Both the position numbers and the translations under genes were made by a program. This document shows positions 66 to 30,802 of a DNA stretch of 34,585 bases, piece after piece. The notes beneath the pieces were generated by a model. That model saw only the letters and a program-made list of their open reading frames with translations, made no database searches and had not been told where the DNA came from. Each line of letters begins with the position of its first letter. Position 1 is the first letter of the stretch. This DNA comes from an uncultured Elusimicrobium sp. (lineage in GTDB: Bacteria; Elusimicrobiota; Elusimicrobia; Elusimicrobiales; Elusimicrobiaceae): contig CAMZDW010000010.1 in NCBI GenBank assembly GCA_947305555.1, forward strand, positions 1 through 34,585. Direction: 5' to 3'.

Positions 66-551
66 ATGAGAAACAAGAATGGTTTTACCTTATTAGAATT
101 ATTAATTGCGGCTGCGATTGTAGGCGGTTTGGCTGTAATGGCAACAGTTTCCTACCGTAACAGTGTGGCGGAAACACGTATCCAGGCTGCAAAGGCACGG
201 GCAGATGTGTTGGCCGGTGCTGTGCAACGTTTTCGTTTGGAGTATCCGAACGCTAGTATATCAAGCGATAAAATGACGGATGATTACGCGTCTGATACTT
301 GTTCTACGGGGAGTTTGTCCCCTACTAGTTTGGTTACTTGTGGTTTTGTAGACAAAGGCGGTTGGGAGGATCCATTTGTTGTTTTTTACATCTGTAACGG
401 TAAAAAAGGGGGCTGTAGTAATTCGAGCATAGATGCGCCCTTGGTCTGTATGACGGGAAATAATAGTCAGTCTAAGTTGCCCGATAAATACAAAGGAAAG
501 TATTCGTACTGTGTAAATGAATTTGGTAGCGCAACGACCAGTGCGGGATGA
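66..551 (+). CDS. Type IV prepilin-like protein 1 (GspG/H- or FimU-like)
   Basis: 161 aa. The start is ATG 66, because GAAGGG about 8 nt upstream is a good ribosome site and this start gives the short basic prepilin leader MRNKNG. The class III signal follows: cleavage after Gly6, then FTLLELL with Glu at mature position +5 and a hydrophobic helix of about 20 residues. The globular part has at least six cysteines, compatible with disulphides outside the cytoplasm. By family knowledge such proteins are cleaved and N-methylated by PilD and assembled into a pilus or pseudopilus at the inner membrane. It is the first of five consecutive pilin-like genes; the operon may begin before the window. 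Whether it is a major or minor pilin cannot be told from sequence. Confidence 0.88.
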   Translation: MRNKNGFTLLELLIAAAIVGGLAVMATVSYRNSVAETRIQAAKARADVLAGAVQRFRLEYPNASISSDKMTDDYASDTCSTGSLSPTSLVTCGFVDKGGWEDPFVVFYICNGKKGGCSNSSIDAPLVCMTGNNSQSKLPDKYKGKYSYCVNEFGSATTSAG

Positions 552-565
552 TTTGGGAGTTAATT

Positions 566-1114
566 ATGAATAAACGCGGTTTTACCCTAATGGAAGTTTT
601 GGCGGTTTTGATGCTTTTAGCGGTGGTGGCTTCGTTATCAATACCGGGTATTCGTGCTGTTCGGTATGAAATCAAAAACGGACAAGCTAAGGTGGCCGCT
701 AAGAAGATGGTGGAAGGTATTAAGTACTTTCGACAGATGACACGCGGAGGAACCGTTAATTCTTTTGGAAGTGATGGCTTTGACCCAAATTCACTAGAGA
801 ATATAGAAGAAGAAGAGTGCGAAGGGGGAATGAATACGGGAATTCCGGGAAGGGAAATTTCGGTTGGTATCCGCCAATTGTTTGCGTGTGGCTATTTGTC
901 TCCGAAAGATTTTAGGGGAGTCCCGTACAAGTTTTATTATGTTGCTATACCATCATCACCAGATGCGCCAGCTATCCCGGCCGATAAGCAGCAGGGAGAC
1001 ATTGTATTGATGGTACTTGGACAGGATGGCGCCGGTCCACGGTATGCTCATGATAAGTATGCTATTTACATAGATGATCGTATGGAACCGATAGAATATG
1101 AAGTAGAGGATTAA
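566..1114 (+). CDS. Type IV prepilin-like protein 2
   Basis: 182 aa. The start is ATG 566, with GGGAG 7 nt upstream; an in-frame ATG at 548 would put six residues before the prepilin leader and is less likely. The leader is MNKRG, then FTLMEVLAVLMLL with Glu+5, the standard prepilin signal and N-terminal helix. The exposed part is rich in charged residues (an acidic EEEE stretch near residue 80) and has a CGYLSPKDF segment. The gene follows pilin 1 after 14 nt and precedes pilin 3 by 7 nt, so all are likely co-transcribed. Its role is probably a minor pilin/pseudopilin by position; the exact GspG/H-type assignment is not certain. Confidence 0.87.
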   Translation: MNKRGFTLMEVLAVLMLLAVVASLSIPGIRAVRYEIKNGQAKVAAKKMVEGIKYFRQMTRGGTVNSFGSDGFDPNSLENIEEEECEGGMNTGIPGREISVGIRQLFACGYLSPKDFRGVPYKFYYVAIPSSPDAPAIPADKQQGDIVLMVLGQDGAGPRYAHDKYAIYIDDRMEPIEYEVED

Positions 1115-1121
1115 ACAATTT

Positions 1122-1631
1122 ATGAAACGGATTCTAAAAAATCGACGAGGTGTTACGCTTTTGGAAGGATTGATTGCCCTGGGCTTGCTAGCTCTAGTGG
1201 CGGCCGGAACGTTTGGTGTGTTGCTTTCAGTTGCCCATAAATCCAGCAAGCCGGATATTCGTGAAGAGATGGTGTTGGCCGTGGAAAAAGCCAACGACCA
1301 GTTGCATGCTTATTCGCAGAATATGAACAATACGCTTACAGAAAATACAACTAAATTATGTGCGGAAGATACGCAAACAAAGCCATTGGCAACGGGAGAA
1401 CATAACATTATATGTTTGCTTCCGGTAATTTGTGATCGGGATCAAAGTTCTTTTACATACACTGTATCAAACGCGATGGAGATGAAATTCTACGACGAAG
1501 AAAATGACGATAAAGCACAAAATAATTTTTTGGCTAAGGACAATTATATTAATGCCGCGGGACTTCAAAATATCAAATCTCTTCATCGGCAAATTACTTT
1601 TAATATTACATGCAATGGGTTTGTATTATGA
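1122..1631 (+). CDS. Minor pseudopilin-like protein 3 (GspI/PilV-like by position)
   Basis: 169 aa. ATG 1122 gives MKRILKNRRG followed by VTLLEGLIALGLL. Mature residue 1 would be Val, not Phe, with Glu at +5. The GxTLLExLIAL pattern is typical of GspI and PilV minor pseudopilins. Its stop TGA (1629-1631) overlaps the ATG of the next pilin gene in an ATGA junction, suggesting translational coupling. A short hydrophobic helix is followed by a polar domain with three cysteines near the C-terminal half. The GspI/PilV label rests on the signal and on gene order, not on an alignment. Confidence 0.82.
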   Translation: MKRILKNRRGVTLLEGLIALGLLALVAAGTFGVLLSVAHKSSKPDIREEMVLAVEKANDQLHAYSQNMNNTLTENTTKLCAEDTQTKPLATGEHNIICLLPVICDRDQSSFTYTVSNAMEMKFYDEENDDKAQNNFLAKDNYINAAGLQNIKSLHRQITFNITCNGFVL

Positions 1632-2320
1632 AACATAAACAAGGTTTTACATTAACGGAAATTTTGTTAGCAGTAATGGTCGTGGGAATTATCGGCGTTG
1701 CGCTAGCTTCGTTGACAACGGCTGCTTCTAGGGAATCCGGTACCGGGCGGAGCCGTGTTATGTTGCGTAATAATTTATCTGTAGCTTTGCGTCAGTTGCG
1801 ACAGGATGTGCATGAGGCCAGCCGAATTATTTATGCGAAGGGCCCTACTAGCAATACAGATGGGCCACTGTTGGTGTTAGCAAGTAATGTGGATTTGGAT
1901 GGAAATGCTTTGGTTGGAACGGCCCGGAAATATATTGCATATTGTTTTACGGCAGCTGGTCTAAATGAAACTTCTTCCGGGGATCCCGTGCAACCCGAGG
2001 GTTCAGCATGGGATGGTGGAGTTATCCGCAGAGTTGTTTCCGGCACGGCCTTAATCCCATCAAACGCTTGTGACACAGCGGGCAAAGAGGGAAAAGTGTG
2101 GCTAAACAATGTGAAATTTATTGCTGCGACGAGTGAATATCCGGTGCCTTGGTTTGATTTTACCAGTTATAATGGGAGCACCTGCCGCGAGGGAGCGAAT
2201 GAAGGACAATGTGCCATTTTAGATGTAAAATTAATTGTAGAATTGAATTCTTTACCCGTTGTAAATGAGGCGGTAGAGGAACGTATTTTAGTTTCTAACG
2301 GGGGCGGCGTGATTGATTAA
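1628..2320 (+). CDS. Minor pseudopilin-like protein 4 (GspJ/PilW-like by position)
   Basis: 230 aa, the longest of the five. The chosen start is ATG 1628 in the ATGA overlap with the preceding gene; the in-frame ATG at 1610 would add six residues before the leader. MKHKQG is followed by FTLTEILLAVMVVGIIG with Glu+5. The sequence after the helix (LRNNLSVALRQLRQDVHEAS, about residues 55-75) looks like the RL.xDLxxA.. segment common in GspJ/PilW proteins. Four further cysteines lie in the C-terminal domain. Order (after a GspI-like, before a GspK-like gene) and greater length both fit GspJ/PilW. It is probably inserted in the inner membrane and assembled at the tip of a pseudopilus. Confidence 0.84.
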   Translation: MKHKQGFTLTEILLAVMVVGIIGVALASLTTAASRESGTGRSRVMLRNNLSVALRQLRQDVHEASRIIYAKGPTSNTDGPLLVLASNVDLDGNALVGTARKYIAYCFTAAGLNETSSGDPVQPEGSAWDGGVIRRVVSGTALIPSNACDTAGKEGKVWLNNVKFIAATSEYPVPWFDFTSYNGSTCREGANEGQCAILDVKLIVELNSLPVVNEAVEERILVSNGGGVID

Positions 2321-2341: not shown

Positions 2342-2800
2342 ATGTTAAGCAATAAAAAAGGTGCAGCTTTATTACAAGTTTTGTTAGTTACAGCGATATT
2401 GGCCGGTATTGCAACGATGTTGCTTAGAGCCAGTTTATCGCGTACGACGTCTGTTCGGCAGACACGGCGAGCAGTATCTGAAGAGTTATTGATAGAATCT
2501 TGCATGGCAGAGGTTAATATGATGTGGAGTAACAAAACTCCGGAAGCGTTTAAGCGTGATATGGCCGGTTGCTGGATGAATTGTAAGACCCCTGCTACCG
2601 GAGCAGAACTTAATATTGATGCCAGTAATTATCTCACCTCAGCCTGTAATACGGACGGTAATTCTATACGTTATTATATTTGCAAAACTCCTCAAGCCAA
2701 TGTGTCGGTGAAAGCTACTTTTGAGGATCCGAGCGTTACTGGCGCTGGCGATTGTAAGTTGACTTATTCCGTCGAAAGAGGAGACGCAGAACAGATGTAA
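2342..2800 (+). CDS. Minor pseudopilin-like protein 5, lacking Glu+5 (GspK/PilX-like)
   Basis: 152 aa. ATG 2342 has GAGGG about 6 nt upstream. The leader MLSNKKG is followed by AALLQVLLVTAILAG, so the residue at mature +5 is Gln where prepilins normally have Glu. GspK and some PilX-type minor pilins characteristically lack Glu+5 and sit at the tip of the pseudopilus, which agrees with this gene being last in the pilin series. It is shorter than GspK proteins (usually about 300 aa), so it is better compared with PilX-like forms. It has five cysteines. The stop is 12 nt from the start of the metallopeptidase-like gene. Confidence 0.78.
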   Translation: MLSNKKGAALLQVLLVTAILAGIATMLLRASLSRTTSVRQTRRAVSEELLIESCMAEVNMMWSNKTPEAFKRDMAGCWMNCKTPATGAELNIDASNYLTSACNTDGNSIRYYICKTPQANVSVKATFEDPSVTGAGDCKLTYSVERGDAEQM

Positions 2801-2812
2801 TTGGTAGGAATT

Positions 2813-4531
2813 ATGAAAACGAAGGTAGTCTGTCTGATTAGTAGTTTATTTTTTAGCATAGTGGTTTGGGGGCAGACTGCTTCGCAAAGTGAGGAGGTGT
2901 CTTCTTCTTTGCGGCTTCCTTCCTCTACGCCGGAAGTTTCTTCCAGCATTGATTTACTAAAAAAGTCTCTTCACAGCTCTTCTCAAACTGTGGTAGGTGT
3001 TGCAAGCTCCACTTCACGTGCCAAGCGAGCAAATAAACAACCCGCCGCGGAGACTTCTCAATCAGATTCAACTCCAGCGCAGACGGACCAAAATACTTCC
3101 AAGCCTGATACTGCCGCCTCGTCCACAGCCGTTCCAACTCAATCGGGTGCTTCAACTGCTGCGGCAGCCGTTTCCGTGCCGACGGGGGCGTCTACTTTAG
3201 ATATGCCTCTTGAAATAGGGGGGACTGCCCAATCTGTTCAAACCTCGGTGAAACCTGTAAAGGCCACGAAACCTTTGTCTCCGGCTGTTGCAAACCGGGT
3301 GGCGAAATCTAAGCAGCAACGTGAAAAAAAAGCAGAACAATCTGCTCCTACGGAAATAGAGAAGGCCATTGAAACCGAAAATACTTTATTGCCACCTTCC
3401 TCCAAAGCTGAGCCCACGGAGGCGCCAACTCCTACCGCCGAAGAAGAAGCTGCCGACGCGGAGTTGGAATATGCTGTTAAAATGTTGGAAGAATCCAAAG
3501 AAAAGGCTAATTCTACAGGACGCCGTATTTTGCCATCTGCTTCTCAGAATCGTCCAAGCAAAGTGCCGGCTCCCAATAAAGCATTTAATCCCAGCGCATA
3601 TCGGCCAGGGGTAACGTGGCTGCCCAGCAAAAGCACACATTTTGATATTTACACGCAGAAACGTACGGAAGGAATTCCCTCGGCAAATATGCCCATGACT
3701 TTTGAATCCGCTTATCAAACGTTGAGCCGTTTTATCCCGTGGATGATGTCCGGCCGCGTGCGTGTATTTGTGTACCAGGATCGTGCTTCTTATCTGCGCC
3801 ATGAACCCAATGCGATTGCTTGGTCGCGTGCAGTTGCTTATCCTACCCGAGGAGAAGTAGTGGTCTATGATGAGCCGGGAAAAAACCAAGAGCTTAAAGA
3901 GTCATTTACGCACGAGTTAACTCACATTTTTACCCAACAGTTTTTTGACAGCCATAAAACGGGACAATTGATGACTCCGTTGTGGTTGGATGAGGGCTTG
4001 GCTGTTATGATGGAAGATCAGGCTTACAACGGCGCTAAAGGCGGCCCTTGGGCCAATGATTTAAAAACCATTAACTTCCAGCGAAATCCGGCCTCTACGG
4101 TGGGGATCGGCGTTCCTTCTTCAAGTATGTTTGGGTCTTCCAATTTGATGAAAAAAAATAGTAAGAAGCGCGGGAAAACCATTGTTTTTGATACGTTTGA
4201 AGATTTTATGCAGGATAATTCTTTGCAAGTAGCTGATAGTAAGGGCAAAGCGCAAGATTGGTATTTACAAGCGTACGCAATGGTGCGGTTTTTGTTCAAC
4301 CCGTCAGGTTCTTCTTCGCCCTCTAACCGAATGCAGTTTGAACAGTTTACGCGTTTGTTATCTCAAGGGGAACCGAAACGGAACCCTTCTACCGGTTTTA
4401 CAGTGAAAGATAAAAATGGTAAGACGATTTACGAACCTTATTCGGTGGAGAAAGCCCTGGGGAAAGCCTACCGATATAATAACATTGCTAGTTTCGAAGA
4501 TGGTTTCTGGCGGTGGGCCAATAATCAATAA
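2813..4531 (+). CDS. Secreted zinc metallopeptidase-like protein (gluzincin HExxH) with long low-complexity linker
   Basis: 572 aa. ATG 2813 is preferred over an in-frame TTG at 2801 because it starts a clear signal peptide (MKTKVVCLISSLFFSIVVWG, then QTA). Residues about 25-260 are Ser/Thr/Ala/Pro/Glu-rich low complexity. The folded part has H367-E368-x-x-H371 in FTHELTHIF and a likely third zinc ligand E394 in WLDEGLAVMMED, the gluzincin (clan MA) arrangement. It therefore probably acts as a metallopeptidase outside the cytoplasm, although the substrate is unknown. The gene lies 12 nt after the pseudopilin series and is likely in the same transcript, so it could be an exported partner or substrate of that machine (inference). 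No membrane anchor beyond the signal is visible. Confidence 0.82.
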   Translation: MKTKVVCLISSLFFSIVVWGQTASQSEEVSSSLRLPSSTPEVSSSIDLLKKSLHSSSQTVVGVASSTSRAKRANKQPAAETSQSDSTPAQTDQNTSKPDTAASSTAVPTQSGASTAAAAVSVPTGASTLDMPLEIGGTAQSVQTSVKPVKATKPLSPAVANRVAKSKQQREKKAEQSAPTEIEKAIETENTLLPPSSKAEPTEAPTPTAEEEAADAELEYAVKMLEESKEKANSTGRRILPSASQNRPSKVPAPNKAFNPSAYRPGVTWLPSKSTHFDIYTQKRTEGIPSANMPMTFESAYQTLSRFIPWMMSGRVRVFVYQDRASYLRHEPNAIAWSRAVAYPTRGEVVVYDEPGKNQELKESFTHELTHIFTQQFFDSHKTGQLMTPLWLDEGLAVMMEDQAYNGAKGGPWANDLKTINFQRNPASTVGIGVPSSSMFGSSNLMKKNSKKRGKTIVFDTFEDFMQDNSLQVADSKGKAQDWYLQAYAMVRFLFNPSGSSSPSNRMQFEQFTRLLSQGEPKRNPSTGFTVKDKNGKTIYEPYSVEKALGKAYRYNNIASFEDGFWRWANNQ

Positions 4532-4551: not shown

Positions 4552-4589
4552 GGAAAATAAAAACACCCCAAACTTAGTTCGGGGTGTAT
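4552..4589 (-). terminator. Rho-independent terminator of the small secreted-protein gene
   Basis: On the minus strand, arms at 4587-4581 and 4569-4563 (seven pairs, extended by AAC/GTT) form a hairpin that includes the stop codon of the 4574-5167 gene; a T-rich tract follows. There is no T-run in the plus direction, so it probably does not stop the metallopeptidase transcript. Confidence 0.75.
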
Positions 4590-5167
4590 TCGTCATCTAA
4601 ATCAATAACGTCCGTCGTGGAGAAAACGGCTTCCATCATAGTTTCCATTTGTTCAGCTTGGATAACCCGGGCAGCACGGCTCGACAAGGTGCCATCTTGA
4701 TCTGCTTTTAGAAATGCGAAAATACTTAATAGATCTGTGCAGTCATCCACTTTTACTTTGGAGGCCGGAACCTCAGTCTGATTTTTAATAATATTGGACG
4801 CTAATTCTTTCAATACCGGCGTAATTTCTGCATTGATTTCATCACTGGAGTTTTTAATTTTATTAAAAATGGCAGGGATGGTTGTATTTAATGCTTTATC
4901 AATAGCTTTGTCAGTTTCATTCAGGTTACCTGCGTTCAGATGGTCATCGTAATTAATCAATCCTCCCTTGAGCGCTTTTATTACGTCTAACGCTTGCTGT
5001 TTCATTTCACTTTCTTGTTGAGATTGAGTCTCTATACTGGTTATTTGCTGTTCCATCCCACCAAAAAAGAGATCAATAAGACCTCGTAATTCGGATGTAT
5101 TACCGGCAAATGCCATGTTCGTAAGGGTTACTGCGACTAGGGCTAACAACCATCTCTTCATTTTCAT
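4574..5167 (-). CDS. Small secreted alpha-helical protein of unknown function
   Basis: 197 aa. I do not recognise the family. The start at 5167 follows a strong AGGAGG; a second ATG at 5161 (MKRWLL) lies 10 nt from that site and is also possible. Residues 1-21 form a signal peptide ([21 protein letters not shown]), so export to the periplasm is likely. The mature part is predicted helical and rich in Gln, Glu, Lys, Asn and Asp, with a single cysteine in [11 protein letters not shown]. It is transcribed divergently from clpP and convergent with the metallopeptidase gene, so it is a single-gene unit. Confidence 0.75.
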
Positions 5168-5293
5168 AATTCCTCCTAGAAATTTTACTTCTACAAGTAT
5201 TCTAAGCAATTTTTACCAAAAGAACATGAGCCTTTGGACCTATTTCAAAGCAATAAAAAGACCTAGAAATTTGCTAGGCCTTCCGCCAAAAAT

Positions 5294-5949: not shown

Positions 5950-7383
5950 CTATAGGGCGTAGAAAGAGGCTGACCTTTCTATGTTAGGTTGCGTAAGTGC
6001 GGTTTGCAGAAGCGAGTTGTCTACGGGAGAAGAATAATTTTCTCTCTCCAAGCGGTTTAGAAAATCATTCCATCGGTTCAGTTCTTCTACGGACACTTTG
6101 GAGGCAACCTGATGTGTTTTTAACTCATCAATTGCAGCATTATCTATCGAGAATCCGGCGATACACGGATCTCCGTAGGGGACTTGAGTGATATTTGAGT
6201 ATTCTTTTTGAGAATAAGAATTATAACAGTGGTAACTCAGTATAGGCTTTGCAAGAGCAGTAGCCAAACGCTGGCTAGCGGACTTTACTGCCGGAGCTGC
6301 ATTGGTTGCTTTGGAAATATCTCGCAGTAAATGTAACATGGCAAACCCAGGCAAGCCTTTTGCAAACGTACTGGTAGGCAAGTTAAATCTTCCGCCTTGG
6401 GTAGCTAAAGGCAACCAATTCTCCAACATGGGAGCAACTTGTTGCCGATAAATATCACCATCTACCACCATCACATTATGTACAACTTTCTTGCCGGGAT
6501 AATACTTAGCCAGTGCCGTTTGCAAAGCAGCTTCTTTGGGGGATTGTCCCAAATTTTTAATTAGGGCCAACGGCCCGGTGGAAAATCCAATTCTTTCCCC
6601 ATCAATTTCCCTGGTTTTTGTATTGTCCGACGCGGAGAAATTGGAAGATGTGATAAGGTACTTCACATCGCTGCCAGTTAGTAGGTGATGGATGTTGGCC
6701 ATGGTGGCCATATAACAGGAAGATAAATCCAGTAAATCCACTTTTAAGTGATTGGCTTTGAGTGCATTAACGAGATGAAAAATAGTAATGTACGGTTTGT
6801 TATCCGTTGTTTTCATCGCTATTTTCATGTGGTGTCCGCTTCCGTGGGCTTTAAACAAAATAGCTGTCTGAAGTCGAGGAGATGCTTGTAACTGTTTCAT
6901 CAACCGGTTTAATACTTCCTGCGCAGACAATTTACTTACATCAACTTGTTTGTATGAATATTTTGGCTCGTCGGAAGGATTATACCCTTTTTCCTTGATT
7001 TGGGGTTTGGCTTGAAAAATATTTAAAAAGGAAGAACCATCTTGACGGGAATAAAACAAGATAGCCTTTTCTACATGATGGGCTTTAAATTGTTTAACCA
7101 ATTCTTCCCGGGTATCGTCTACGGCACCCCATTTTTCCAAATTTCCGGTATTGAGAAAAATAAGCACTTGCCATTTTTTATCAAACGTAGAGGCAGGAAG
7201 AATGTTTTCCAGAGAAGATTGTAGCTGGGCCGGTGAAGAATGTAGGGAGCTTGACTGATTGGTTTTGGCATTGTGCAAAAATTCCAGCAGGCGGCTTCCA
7301 TCCATGTTTGCCGACGGACGTTGTTGCGCCTGGGAATATACACTCATCAAGCCAAATAATAAACCTATCAATAATTTTTTCAT
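5950..7383 (-). CDS. Secreted clostripain-like cysteine peptidase (family C11)
   Basis: 477 aa. ATG 7383 follows GAGGA by about 6 nt and opens a signal peptide (MKKLLIGLLFGLMSVYSQAQ); the upstream in-frame extension covers promoter sequence and was dropped. C11 peptidases use a His-Cys dyad: His180 in FKAHGSGHH and Cys223 in DLSSCYMAT fit, the Cys being preceded by a hydrophobic strand (KVDLLDLSS) as in the family. The protein is likely exported and, by family knowledge, would cleave after Arg or Lys, though the specificity pocket cannot be read here. No neighbour suggests a pathway. It has its own promoter with near-consensus boxes and shares a terminator with clpP. Confidence 0.85.
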   Translation of the reverse strand: MKKLLIGLLFGLMSVYSQAQQRPSANMDGSRLLEFLHNAKTNQSSSLHSSPAQLQSSLENILPASTFDKKWQVLIFLNTGNLEKWGAVDDTREELVKQFKAHHVEKAILFYSRQDGSSFLNIFQAKPQIKEKGYNPSDEPKYSYKQVDVSKLSAQEVLNRLMKQLQASPRLQTAILFKAHGSGHHMKIAMKTTDNKPYITIFHLVNALKANHLKVDLLDLSSCYMATMANIHHLLTGSDVKYLITSSNFSASDNTKTREIDGERIGFSTGPLALIKNLGQSPKEAALQTALAKYYPGKKVVHNVMVVDGDIYRQQVAPMLENWLPLATQGGRFNLPTSTFAKGLPGFAMLHLLRDISKATNAAPAVKSASQRLATALAKPILSYHCYNSYSQKEYSNITQVPYGDPCIAGFSIDNAAIDELKTHQVASKVSVEELNRWNDFLNRLERENYSSPVDNSLLQTALTQPNIERSASFYAL

Positions 7384-7414
7384 AAAAATCCTCACAAATA
7401 AGTTGTGTATTTTA

Positions 7415-7443
7415 ATTATAGAAGTATTTTGGGGAACTTTCAA
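7415..7443 (-). promoter_or_regulatory. Promoter of the clostripain-like gene
   Basis: On the minus strand TTGAAA (7443-7438), a 17-nt spacer and TATAAT (7420-7415) lie 31 nt upstream of the ATG. A typical housekeeping sigma-70-type promoter. Confidence 0.75.
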
Positions 7444-7475
7444 GTTCTCCGTCGGCATTGATAATATAATTAAAA

Positions 7476-7502
7476 TTAGCAAACAAATTTATTATTTGCT
7501 AA
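7476..7502. promoter_or_regulatory. CIRCE-like inverted repeat overlapping the lon -35 box (putative HrcA operator)
   Basis: TTAGCAAAC, 9 nt, ATTTGCTAA. The geometry (9-9-9) and the outer TTAGCA/TGCTAA half-sites match the HrcA operator consensus TTAGCACTC-N9-GAGTGCTAA; 13 of 18 positions agree. The arms extend to a perfect 12-bp inverted repeat (7472-7483 with 7495-7506). The right arm contains the -35 box of lon, the placement expected of a repressor site. Confidence 0.6.
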
Positions 7503-29141: not shown

Positions 29142-29609
29142 TTATTTTATCCAATAGGCTTTTTCACCCCCGATGATTTCGGGGGTATTTTCATTATGTG
29201 CTTGCGTGATACAAAAATCTTCCCCGGCACTGTTTATCGGTACACAATTAAGTCGTGCAAAATTATGCGTGGTTACCAGTTTGTAACGTGCGTGGGTATC
29301 TTCTTTTAGTTGCGTGAATTCCGCTTCCCAGCAAATTTCGTTGGGATCTGTTTTTTCGCGGCAAACTAATTGCCCGGTAAAATAATTTAATTTTGTTTGC
29401 TGTAATCTATCAGTAATGCGGTCGGCCTGTTGCTGTGATAGAGAAGCCCCGGTAACCCAATTTTTTTGCCGGCCCCATAGTGTAACAACTTCGGTAATGC
29501 GAGCACTTTCTACGGCGTGGAAGTAATAAGGCAGGGCAACACCCACCAAAATGGTCACGATCGTAACCACTACTAACATTTCCAGTAATGAAAAACCGGC
29601 AGACTTCAT
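29142..29609 (-). CDS. Type IV pilin-like protein 6, coupled to an AlbA_2 gene
   Basis: 155 aa. Short leader MKSAG, then FSLLEMLVVVTIVTILVGVALPYY with Glu+5, a complete class III prepilin signal and hydrophobic N-terminal helix. The globular part has four cysteines and a C-terminal EIIGGEKAYWIK. It is assembled in or on the membrane by a type IV pilus machine that is not in this window. Its ATG (29609-29607) overlaps the stop of the upstream AlbA_2 gene in an ATGA junction, an unusual partner for a pilin. It is separate from the 66-2800 operon and could be a dispersed minor pilin. Confidence 0.87.
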   Translation of the reverse strand: MKSAGFSLLEMLVVVTIVTILVGVALPYYFHAVESARITEVVTLWGRQKNWVTGASLSQQQADRITDRLQQTKLNYFTGQLVCREKTDPNEICWEAEFTQLKEDTHARYKLVTTHNFARLNCVPINSAGEDFCITQAHNENTPEIIGGEKAYWIK

Positions 29610-30790
29610 ATAGCCTCGCGAAGTAGTTTTTCCGTCAATGATTTGATTTCTTCGTTGGAAAGTTGCAAGCCCAAAGACCAGGCAACTTCATGTAATAAAC
29701 TTTCCAAAATGAAGGGGAGTTCGGTTTGAAGTTCCGTTTGGGAAAAAGAACGATCTAAACGCAGGTAGTCTTCCAACATCGTGGATTGTCGGTTTAAGAA
29801 TAAAGCACGCCGTGCACAAAGATGTTCTAATTTTAAACGGAAAGAAAGGGGGCCTCCGCTGGCCAGTTTATCTAAAAATTTGCGGGCCGTTAAAAAGAAC
29901 AGCGTAATATTTTGAGCCAGCGTTTCAAAACGAATGATGCTACCTACATGCCCATTTACCATTTCTTCCGCAGAAACCACTTGCTTATTCATAATCAGCC
30001 CATAGGCGTTAAATTCGGTCATTTTGTATTCTGCGCGTTTGTTGGAGATAATCACCATCCCGTCTTGGACGGGCAGGAGGGGAAAATCCGGGTTGGCCAT
30101 TGTACCATAAGGAGCGCGTGCGGCTGCACTGGTAATGAAATCGGGCAATTTTTTATAACTGGCTAGGGGTTCATCCGGGTAAGTAGGTAAAATAGACAAG
30201 GTGCAAACAGCCTCTTGTTGTATATTTGCAGTTCGTGTTTTTAGATAATTTTCGAAATGGCTTTCGGCCTTGTCATACAGAATATGACGTAAATTTTCAG
30301 ATTTTCTGCGGTGGTCCAACAGCCAGGGTAATTTTTCGGGATGAACAATTGCTTCCGGGCGGCTGGATTGCCCTGTACGGATGTAGGCTCGTTTTAATTT
30401 GCCCACAAGATGGGGCGTTAAATTACTCTGCGGAATTTGAATTACCACAAACATCCGATCCCCTGTTTTATTGACGCAAATGTTAATATCCACAAACACA
30501 ATAGGGTCAATGTATACTTGGATAATATCTTCAATACTGTTTCGTAGTTTTTCGTGATAGGGAATCCCGGTAAATGGAGGGCAGGGCTTGTCATTACGGT
30601 CATCCTGTACCCCGATAATTACCACTCCTCCCAACGCATTAGCAAACGAGGCAATCGTTTTGGCAAATTTTTCGTGATTTTTGGGCAGTAAATACTTATA
30701 GTCCAACTGTTTGCCCTCCGGTAATTGACGTTGGCAAAAATGGACAATGTCCTCAAAGGTTAATTCATGAAACGGTTTATCAAAAAACAT
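29606..30790 (-). CDS. AlbA_2 (Schlafen-like, divergent AAA_4) domain protein
   Basis: 394 aa. ATG 30790 (MFFDKPF) was chosen: GAGG lies 7 nt upstream; the ATG at 30796 is only one nt from it. Residues about 5-135 fit the AlbA_2/Schlafen domain: LDYKYLLP, KFAKTIASFANALGGVVIIGVQDD (the conserved FAN..GG..IGV core), DRMFVVIQIPQS and KRAYIRTGQSSRPE. The family binds nucleic acids or acts as a regulator, and some members are nucleases; no function is established here. The C-terminal half (about 200-394) is helical with no domain I can name. It is cytoplasmic and is translated together with a pilin-like gene, so a regulatory role on that pilin is conceivable (inference). Confidence 0.82.
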   Translation of the reverse strand: MFFDKPFHELTFEDIVHFCQRQLPEGKQLDYKYLLPKNHEKFAKTIASFANALGGVVIIGVQDDRNDKPCPPFTGIPYHEKLRNSIEDIIQVYIDPIVFVDINICVNKTGDRMFVVIQIPQSNLTPHLVGKLKRAYIRTGQSSRPEAIVHPEKLPWLLDHRRKSENLRHILYDKAESHFENYLKTRTANIQQEAVCTLSILPTYPDEPLASYKKLPDFITSAAARAPYGTMANPDFPLLPVQDGMVIISNKRAEYKMTEFNAYGLIMNKQVVSAEEMVNGHVGSIIRFETLAQNITLFFLTARKFLDKLASGGPLSFRLKLEHLCARRALFLNRQSTMLEDYLRLDRSFSQTELQTELPFILESLLHEVAWSLGLQLSNEEIKSLTEKLLREAI

Positions 30791-30802
30791 ACGCATACCT
30801 CG

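What the first reader, a model, noticed from the sequence alone, without database searches (positions are those of the whole stretch)
2813..4531. Metallopeptidase with a 230-residue disordered stalk in the pseudopilin operon
The last gene of the pilin series encodes a signal peptide, a long Ser/Thr/Ala/Pro stalk and a HExxH...E catalytic domain. Its place suggests a pilus-linked or exported protease, perhaps a cargo of the pseudopilus or a processor of it.
Basis: inference. Interest (0 to 1): 0.5.

Follow-up and report, generated by a model that had tools for sequence, protein, structure and literature searches.

The report
Metallopeptidase ending a pilus operon
A gut bacterium related to Elusimicrobium ends its type IV pilus operon with a gene for an exported zinc protease, and nearly all close relatives do the same, which suggests that this pilus works together with its own protein-cutting enzyme.

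Summary
The 572-residue ORF (2813-4531) has a signal peptide, a Ser/Thr/Ala/Pro-rich tail and a catalytic domain with conserved HExxH(x22)E. The tail is no uniform stalk: about 21-156 is predicted disordered, 157-233 largely helical, with short conserved islands.

The neighbourhood is a type IVa-like pilus operon (PilMN, O, P-like, Q, B, C, pilins, a PilX/GspK-like pilin, then the peptidase); two PilT genes lie elsewhere. The peptidase directly follows a pilin gene in 51 of 51 testable genus loci and 16 of 20 from other genera of the family. In the sister family a same-strand pilin is within 3 kb in 16 of 20; in other families of the class none of 19 is adjacent. A paralogue in the same genome is not in the pilus operon.

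The fold is gluzincin, nearest M9 collagenase and M30 lugdulysin. Best reading: a Sec-exported endopeptidase dedicated to this pilus, in the slot of PilY1, most likely displayed or exported by the minor-pilin tip. Display is inferred; a periplasmic role is the main rival. Tail-less relatives and the lack of an aromatic anchor argue against a simple TcpF-like signal.

The parts
2813..4531 (+). metallopeptidase gene (572 aa), last gene of the pilus operon
2813..2872 (+). signal peptide, residues 1-20 (cleavage before Q21 inferred)
   Evidence: Q21 in 44 of 45; helix 2-19
2873..3280 (+). disordered part of the tail, residues 21-156
   Evidence: mostly pLDDT under 50
2900..2971 (+). conserved island I in the tail, residues 30-53 (D47 44/45, L48 41/45, P42 40/45)
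3194..3250 (+). conserved island II, residues 128-146 (P132 42/45); holds the STL.M-like motif that recurs in 7 of 9 tailed g5 proteins
3281..3511 (+). helical linker, residues 157-233, with conserved helix 209-233
   Evidence: pLDDT up to 86; A214, E217, L218, A221 in 45 of 45
3584..4528 (+). catalytic domain, residues 258-572
   Evidence: model of residues 205-572, mean pLDDT 84.8, gluzincin fold
3911..3925 (+). HELTH zinc-binding motif, residues 367-371
3992..3994 (+). E394, presumed third zinc ligand
   Evidence: 71 of 71; 22 residues after H371
2342..2800 (+). PilX/GspK-like minor pilin, Gln instead of Glu at mature position 5
   Evidence: weak NF037980 GspK match (E 0.012); sequence
1628..2320 (+). 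minor pilin, J/PilW-like by position and size
   Evidence: N_methyl above cut-off
1122..1631 (+). minor pilin, I/PilV-like by position
   Evidence: N_methyl above cut-off; weak GspI match
566..1114 (+). pilin
   Evidence: N_methyl above cut-off
66..551 (+). pilin; the rest of the operon (pilMN, O, P-like, Q, B, C, start of the first pilin) lies on contig C8 of the same genome (L174), with an apparent gap of about 440 bp

Best explanation
The gene encodes a Sec-exported zinc endopeptidase (gluzincin, MA clan) that is a dedicated accessory of the cell's type IVa-like pilus machine. It is encoded in the same operon, directly after the PilX/GspK-like tip pilin, the slot that PilY1 takes in other T4aP operons. 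Most likely mechanism: after Sec export the enzyme meets the minor-pilin complex at the pilus base, its N-terminal tail (conserved islands on a disordered chain) helps it dock, and pilus growth carries it through the secretin, so that a PilT-retractable pilus presents or releases a protease outside the cell. Shown here: catalytic residues, signal-peptide-like N-terminus, operon position and its conservation, T4aP-like gene content, predicted fold. Inferred: proteolytic activity, docking to minor pilins, passage through the secretin, substrate.
For: Conserved position: directly after a pilin gene in 51 of 51 testable genus loci (50 the PilX/GspK-like one), after the PilX/GspK-like gene in 16 of 20 from other genera, within 3 kb of a same-strand pilin in 16 of 20 in the sister family; a relative in 87 of 90 genomes of the family. 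By hand, 184 of 187 genomes with a peptidase match (paralogues included) also have a PilC match. Comparison: the paralogue in the same genome lies between rsmG- and rsmH-like genes (names by my reading). Catalytic residues conserved. Machine type: PilM_2 marginally above cut-off (27.2 against 27), two PilT/U well above cut-off, exactly one PilC match in 57 of 58 genus genomes. Tail islands and a predicted disordered stretch; a short motif of island II recurs in 7 of 9 tailed g5 proteins (post hoc). Precedents: TcpF and CofJ, secreted proteins of pilus operons, are bound by a minor pilin through a flexible N-terminus (PMC9565799, abstract and passages); [quoted passage not shown] the protease PepO was reported as secreted with the help of T4P components in Francisella novicida (PMC4688374, passages).
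Against: The tail is 3-31 residues in 8 of 20 representatives of other genera (g3, g4, g6 and five g5) and the protein is mostly about 300 aa in the sister family, so the tail cannot be a universal docking signal. In the window protein the tail has no F or W and a single Tyr (Y220), whereas the TcpF and CofJ signals depend on an aromatic residue; six of nine tailed g5 proteins do have F or W within the first 10 mature residues. The catalytic domain is conserved nearly as much as PilQ, PilC and PilB (0.74 mean pairwise identity against 0.77-0.83), while minor pilins (0.47-0.49), PilO-like (0.47) and PilP-like (0.53) vary; this is equally compatible with a periplasmic housekeeping enzyme. In other families of the class the gene is not adjacent to pilins (0 of 19). 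Two g2 genomes and one g4 genome have no same-strand pilin within 3 kb. 52 of 236 PilC-bearing genomes of the phylum have no peptidase match. No localisation, activity or interaction data exist here.
Confidence: 0.45

Rival explanations
1. Periplasmic pilus-maintenance protease: it stays in the periplasm and trims, matures or clears pilins or envelope proteins at the pilus machine. The tail tethers it to the machine or acts as a pro-region.
For: Catalytic domain nearly as conserved as PilQ and PilC; sister-family members are mostly little more than a signal peptide plus a domain, about 300 aa; no export signal is demonstrable; the genome has 49 N_methyl sites, so many potential substrates; helices at 157-233 adjoin the catalytic domain in sequence, as a pro-region might.
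Against: Prepilins are processed by PilD (PMC10191384, passage), an unrelated membrane aspartic enzyme (recalled). The minor pilins vary fast (0.47-0.49) while the enzyme does not, so a pilin-specific substrate would have to lie in their conserved N-terminal parts.
Confidence: 0.3
2. General exoprotease for amino-acid supply that happens to be co-transcribed with the pilus operon and reaches the outside by another route, with no functional link to the pilus.
For: In other families of the class the gene is not adjacent to pilins (0 of 19); two g2 genomes keep the enzyme away from pilus genes. In the three loci scanned outside the family (L134, L146, L170) a uvrA gene is a neighbour, so shared synteny could explain part of the linkage.
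Against: Tight in-operon position in 67 of 71 testable loci of the family (51 of 51 and 16 of 20), and tail-to-tail adjacency even when inverted (L146, L149, L152). One PilC-type machine per genus genome at the threshold used; other export routes, Tad systems included, were not searched for.
Confidence: 0.15
3. Cargo of a true type II secretion system rather than of a pilus: the operon is a T2SS and the peptidase one of its substrates.
For: The platform protein scores best as GspF; pilin order resembles GHIJK; weak GspM and GspC/T2SSB resemblances.
Against: PilM_2 marginally above cut-off, PilM-PilN-like fusion, two PilT/U ATPases above cut-off in the genome, PilQ and PilB models scoring slightly better than GspD and GspE. 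None of the T2SS equivalog cut-offs is reached; nor are those of PilQ and PilB.
Confidence: 0.07

Closest known systems
PilY1/PilC tip protein of type IVa pili
   Same: Type I signal peptide (here by inspection), poorly conserved N-terminal region, well conserved C-terminal domain, gene beside the minor pilin genes
   Different: C-terminal domain is a gluzincin peptidase, not the PilY1 domain (no PF05567 match); tip location unknown
TcpF / CofJ, secreted proteins of type IVb pili
   Same: Soluble exported protein encoded in a pilus operon, flexible N-terminus
   Different: Enzyme domain; T4aP-like machine; no aromatic anchor residue near the mature N-terminus of the window protein; tail missing in many relatives
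Peptidase_MA_2 (PF13485) gluzincins
   Same: HExxH...E core; 21 of 21 diverse members match at E up to 0.01
   Different: Window protein scores 27.0-28.6 bits, below the 32.4 cut-off; this branch is pilus-linked
M9 collagenase and M30 lugdulysin peptidase domains
   Same: Fold: VIA Z 15.0 (7esi_A, 226 aligned, rmsd 3.8) and 14.9 (7bb9, 246 aligned, rmsd 4.2)
   Different: 10-15% identity; no PDB chain at Foldseek E 0.001 or better; no M9 or M30 family among the Pfam matches at E up to 1
PepO of Francisella novicida
   Same: A protease reported as secreted with the help of T4P components (PMC4688374, passages)
   Different: No sequence compared; not known here to be operon-encoded or related

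Membership tests
MA-clan gluzincin (Peptidase_MA_2) | HExxH with a downstream Glu ligand | tested here: met
   H367, E368, H371, E394; invariant in 21 of 21; metal binding itself not tested
MA-clan gluzincin (Peptidase_MA_2) | Pfam gathering score 32.4 for the window protein | tested here: not met
   27.0 bits whole protein, 28.6 for residues 205-572
MA-clan gluzincin (Peptidase_MA_2) | gluzincin fold | tested here: met
   predicted model, pLDDT 84.8; matches to M9, M30 and M1 peptidases
M9 collagenase | membership by sequence or by collagen cleavage | tested here: inconclusive
   fold match only; no M9 family among Pfam matches; activity not testable
PilY1 | PilY1 C-terminal domain PF05567 | tested here: not met
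   no match
PilY1 | type I signal peptide, variable N-terminal region, gene next to minor pilins | tested here: met
   signal peptide by inspection; tail identity 0.36 against 0.74 for the domain; position
PilY1 | location at the pilus tip | not testable with these tools
   needs microscopy or purified pili
TcpF/CofJ-type T4bP secreted protein | encoded in the pilus operon | tested here: met
TcpF/CofJ-type T4bP secreted protein | aromatic anchor residue near the mature N-terminus | tested here: not met
   window protein: no F, W or Y in residues 21-219; 6 of 9 tailed g5 relatives have F or W within the first 10 mature residues; requirement from PMC9565799, passages
type IVa pilus machine | PilM-type cytoplasmic protein and PilT-type retraction ATPase | tested here: met
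   PF11104 27.2 bits (cut-off 27), but TIGR01175 pilM 43.1 of 133; TIGR01420 418 and 478 bits (cut-off 319.1)
type IVa pilus machine | NCBIfam cut-offs for PilQ, PilB and a PilC or GspF model | tested here: not met
   relative L032: PilQ 224.8 of 284.35, PilB 565.7 of 675.65, GspF 322.8 of 424, PilC 284.2 of 700; Pfam Secretin, T2SSE and T2SSF far above cut-off

The most novel reading that the evidence does not exclude
In Elusimicrobiaceae and relatives the T4aP tip protein PilY1 has been replaced by a metallopeptidase, so that a retractable pilus carries a protease at its tip: a device that can attach, cut and pull protein substrates, or release the enzyme at a distance.
Probability: 0.25. 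Interest if true: 0.75.

Novelty: new variant of a known kind. Interest (0 to 1): 0.5.

Why it matters
To my knowledge, export of soluble proteins by type IV pili is documented for few proteins and its signal is known in detail only for T4bP. A pilus operon that ends in an enzyme in nearly every tested locus of a family gives a testable T4aP-like case, with a natural series of tailed and tail-less relatives to find what docks to the minor pilins. It would also help explain why a phylum whose isolates are reported as non-motile (PMC11257099, passage) keeps retraction ATPases and many pilins.

Tried and rejected
1) Absence of PilY1 as proof of replacement: PF05567 gave 0 of 90 genomes in the family, and in the class 1 of 196 at E 5e-4 with 0 of 196 above cut-off; the 14 control genomes also gave none, so this does not show absence.
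2) A shared docking motif was noticed by eye after aligning. With SSTLDM, 7 of 12 tails of other genera gave p of 0.03 or less against shuffles, all seven in g5; the other five (two g5, all three g2, whose STF variant I first took for the same motif) gave 0.09-0.94. The tails are related, so the combined p is not independent evidence. The longer SSTLDMPL was weaker (9 of 12 above 0.1), and island I gave 2 of 12 under 0.05.
3) The neighbour of about 920-980 aa in L134, L146 and L170 is UvrA, a synteny neighbour and not a partner; a UvrA fragment also lies near the g5 peptidase in L085. Similar-sized neighbours in other loci were not scanned.
4) In two g2 genomes (L098, L100) I asked whether the peptidase had moved together with its PilX/GspK-like pilin. 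It had not: the K profile found nothing in L098, L100 or L102, and the neighbour looks like a small helix-turn-helix protein (my reading).
5) Co-inheritance: Mantel r of the peptidase domain with PilC, PilQ, K and J is 0.77-0.84 (32 loci), but pairs of pilus genes give 0.79-0.86, so this shows vertical descent and is not specific.
6) Literature: no paper holds 'metallopeptidase' and 'type IV pilus operon' together (a narrow phrase); the E. minutum genome paper is not held. Listings for Elusimicrobium or Elusimicrobia with pilin, secretion system, type IV pili or peptidase and for PilY1, tip and protease (12 of 58 listed) showed no title or abstract on this gene; only a few passages were read. 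PMC6668835 (passage) reports Tad systems in Elusimicrobia, which I did not search for.
7) Promoter scan at chance level (11 found, 11.9 expected); the hairpin at 4563-4587 just after the gene scores as a terminator only for the - strand.

Full report
What is there. The window is the whole contig C10 of an incomplete genome (79.9% complete, 1.36 Mb in 60 contigs). The named records that encode close relatives are mostly Elusimicrobium, Elusimicrobiales and Elusimicrobiaceae MAGs, one of them Candidatus Avelusimicrobium; those whose titles tell a source are from gut, rumen or faeces. The gene runs from ATG 2813 to stop 4531 (572 aa; the mechanical ORF begins at TTG 2801). It follows five pilin-type genes on the same strand; the last of these, the PilX/GspK-like pilin, has Gln at mature position 5 (position read from the sequence).

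The protein. Residues 1-20 are a signal peptide by inspection, and Q21 is the commonest residue in 44 of 45 genus members. The stretch 21-255 is 50% S+T+A+P. A whole-length AlphaFold model (45 sequences, mean pLDDT 73.4) is mostly under 50 for 21-156, but helical at 157-175, 181-188 and 209-233, the last with block pLDDT 84-86. The stalk is therefore a disordered chain plus a helical linker. Within the genus it holds conserved islands: mean share of the commonest residue 0.62 (30-53), 0.55 (128-146), 0.54 (183-193) and 0.68 (210-247), against 0.22 for 54-126 and 0.81 for the catalytic domain; 0 of 5000 column shuffles reach the observed clustering. Counted to the residue before W269 with a crude cleavage rule, the tail is 169-257 residues in 48 genus proteins and 83-162 in 12 of the 20 representatives of other genera; the other 8 have 3-31. 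In the sister family the whole protein is mostly about 300 aa.

The enzyme. HExxH (367-371) and E394, 22 residues after H371, are conserved (71 of 72 or better; 21 of 21; the one departure at E368 is L078, a fragment at a contig end). All 21 members of a diverse alignment match Peptidase_MA_2 at E up to 0.01, four match DUF2268 and three Peptidase_M1; the window protein itself is below the MA_2 cut-off. The model of residues 205-572 (pLDDT 84.8) aligns best with M9 collagenases and M30 lugdulysin (Z 13-15, rmsd 3.4-4.5) and then with M1-type chains (Z 10.4-11.5). Foldseek gave no E of 0.001 or better; its top rows are M1 and M61 aminopeptidases. A profile search of PDB sequences gave M1 aminopeptidases at E 0.005 and above. 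I infer a zinc endopeptidase; activity is untested.

The operon. In relatives the upstream part is complete. In the window's own genome it lies at the end of contig C8 (L174), which stops inside the first pilin; compared with the relative L032, about 440 bp are missing between the two contigs. It encodes a 530-aa protein with a PilM N-terminus (PF11104 marginally above cut-off) and one transmembrane segment near residue 346, so probably a PilM-PilN fusion (my reading), a PilO-like protein, a PilP-like protein (signal-peptide-like start, charged linker, C-terminal stretch weakly resembling T2SSB/GspC), a secretin, a PilB/GspE ATPase and PilC/GspF. Two PilT/U genes above cut-off lie on C18 and C26. 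Of 58 genus genomes sampled, 57 have exactly one PilC match at E up to 1e-20 and one (G032) has none. The machine is best read as a type IVa-like, retractable pilus, the only one of its type in the genus at that threshold. The NCBIfam cut-offs for PilQ, PilB and PilC/GspF are not reached by the relative L032, so the label is by gene content; Tad systems were not searched for.

Conservation of the link. A relative at E up to 1e-5 occurs in 87 of 90 genomes of the family. Among 53 genus loci (52 plus the window), 51 have upstream sequence; in 51 of 51 the next gene upstream is a pilin-type gene, in 50 the PilX/GspK-like one, mostly within about 25 bp, and 46 of 51 also show pilus core genes upstream. 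In 20 loci of other genera the PilX/GspK-like gene is directly upstream in 16 and a pilin lies within 3 kb in 17; the exceptions are L098 and L100 (g2) and L102 (g4). In the sister family (21 loci, 20 testable) a pilin is directly upstream in 12 and within 3 kb on the same strand in 16; in L146, L149 and L152 the gene is inverted but still ends beside the pilin series. In 19 loci of other families of the class none is adjacent, 2 have a pilin within 3 kb and 12 have secretin, ATPase or platform genes upstream on the same strand. The 40 loci outside the family are one match per genome, chosen from the genomes listed, not a census. In the three of these whose large neighbour was scanned (L134, L146, L170) it is uvrA. 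Across 294 genomes of the phylum, 187 have a peptidase match (paralogues included) and 236 a PilC match; by hand, 184 of the 187 have both, and 52 PilC-bearing genomes lack the peptidase. The paralogue in the same genome lies between rsmG- and rsmH-like genes (L002; names by my reading), and in two other genomes the paralogue has no profile-recognised pilus gene within the 6 and 9.5 kb fetched (L177, L178).

Rates. In the genus the catalytic domain has mean pairwise identity 0.74, near PilQ 0.77, PilC 0.79 and PilB 0.83, and above the minor pilins (0.47-0.49), PilO-like (0.47) and PilP-like (0.53); the tail has 0.36. The enzyme is thus kept about as strictly as the conserved core of the machine. 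Distances of the peptidase, PilC, PilQ, K and J are all correlated, as expected for vertical descent.

How it most likely works. [quoted passage not shown] TcpF and CofJ are soluble proteins whose flexible N-terminus binds the tip minor pilin; the proposed model is that the growing pilus carries TcpF out (PMC9565799, abstract and passages). The present gene has the position and layout of PilY1 with an enzyme in place of the PilY1 domain. I therefore favour export or tip display of the peptidase by the minor-pilin complex (0.45). Points against: tail-less relatives, no aromatic anchor in the window protein (though 6 of 9 tailed g5 proteins have one), core-like conservation, weak linkage outside the order. 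A periplasmic maintenance role is the main rival (0.30).

Novelty and verdict. The literature searches showed no report of this pairing (listings and a few passages only; the E. minutum genome paper is not held). I rate it a new variant of a known kind, interest 0.5. The finding is real and conserved; the mechanism needs localisation data.

Noticed in passing
whole genome G000; window 66-140, 566-637, 1137-1211, 1628-1705, 29532-29609: 49 N_methyl (prepilin) sites above Pfam's cut-off in a 1.36 Mb genome that is only 80% complete, a few of them within open frames of 464-591 aa.
   Followed up: partly
window 29142-30796 (-): A lone pilin gene overlaps the end of a gene with a Schlafen/AlbA_2 domain, away from the pilus operon.
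   Followed up: no
L174:4074-5663: Probable PilM-PilN fusion (530 aa, PilM N-terminus, single transmembrane segment near 346) in the window's own pilus operon.
   Followed up: partly
L002:1396-2634: A second MA_2-type peptidase (above the Pfam cut-off) between rsmG-like and rsmH-like genes, with an N-terminal Pro/Ser-rich stretch of its own; one search lists more than one match for 55 of 58 genus genomes, not checked one by one.
   Followed up: partly
window 4574-5209 (-): Fast-evolving protein with a signal-peptide-like start and no Pfam match (mean identity 0.34 in 14 loci), convergent with the peptidase gene; its cluster has members in 24 of the 84 sequences compared.
   Followed up: no
window 5950-7482 (-): Clostripain-like protein (Peptidase_C11, 20.4 bits, below the cut-off of 25.8) with a signal-peptide-like start, three genes downstream of the metallopeptidase: another candidate secreted protease.
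   Followed up: no
L159:10795-13998, L161:11238-14501, L162:11777-15001: In three genomes of other families of the class the peptidase is followed on the same strand by a protein of at least 1,068-1,088 aa that runs off the fetched stretch; the one scanned (L161) has beta-helix and SBBP repeats. It could be a surface partner or substrate.
   Followed up: no
L085-L089, L091, L092, L094-L097, L099 (g5): Within one genus some peptidases have a tail of about 110 residues and others almost none, a natural tail-deletion series.
   Followed up: partly
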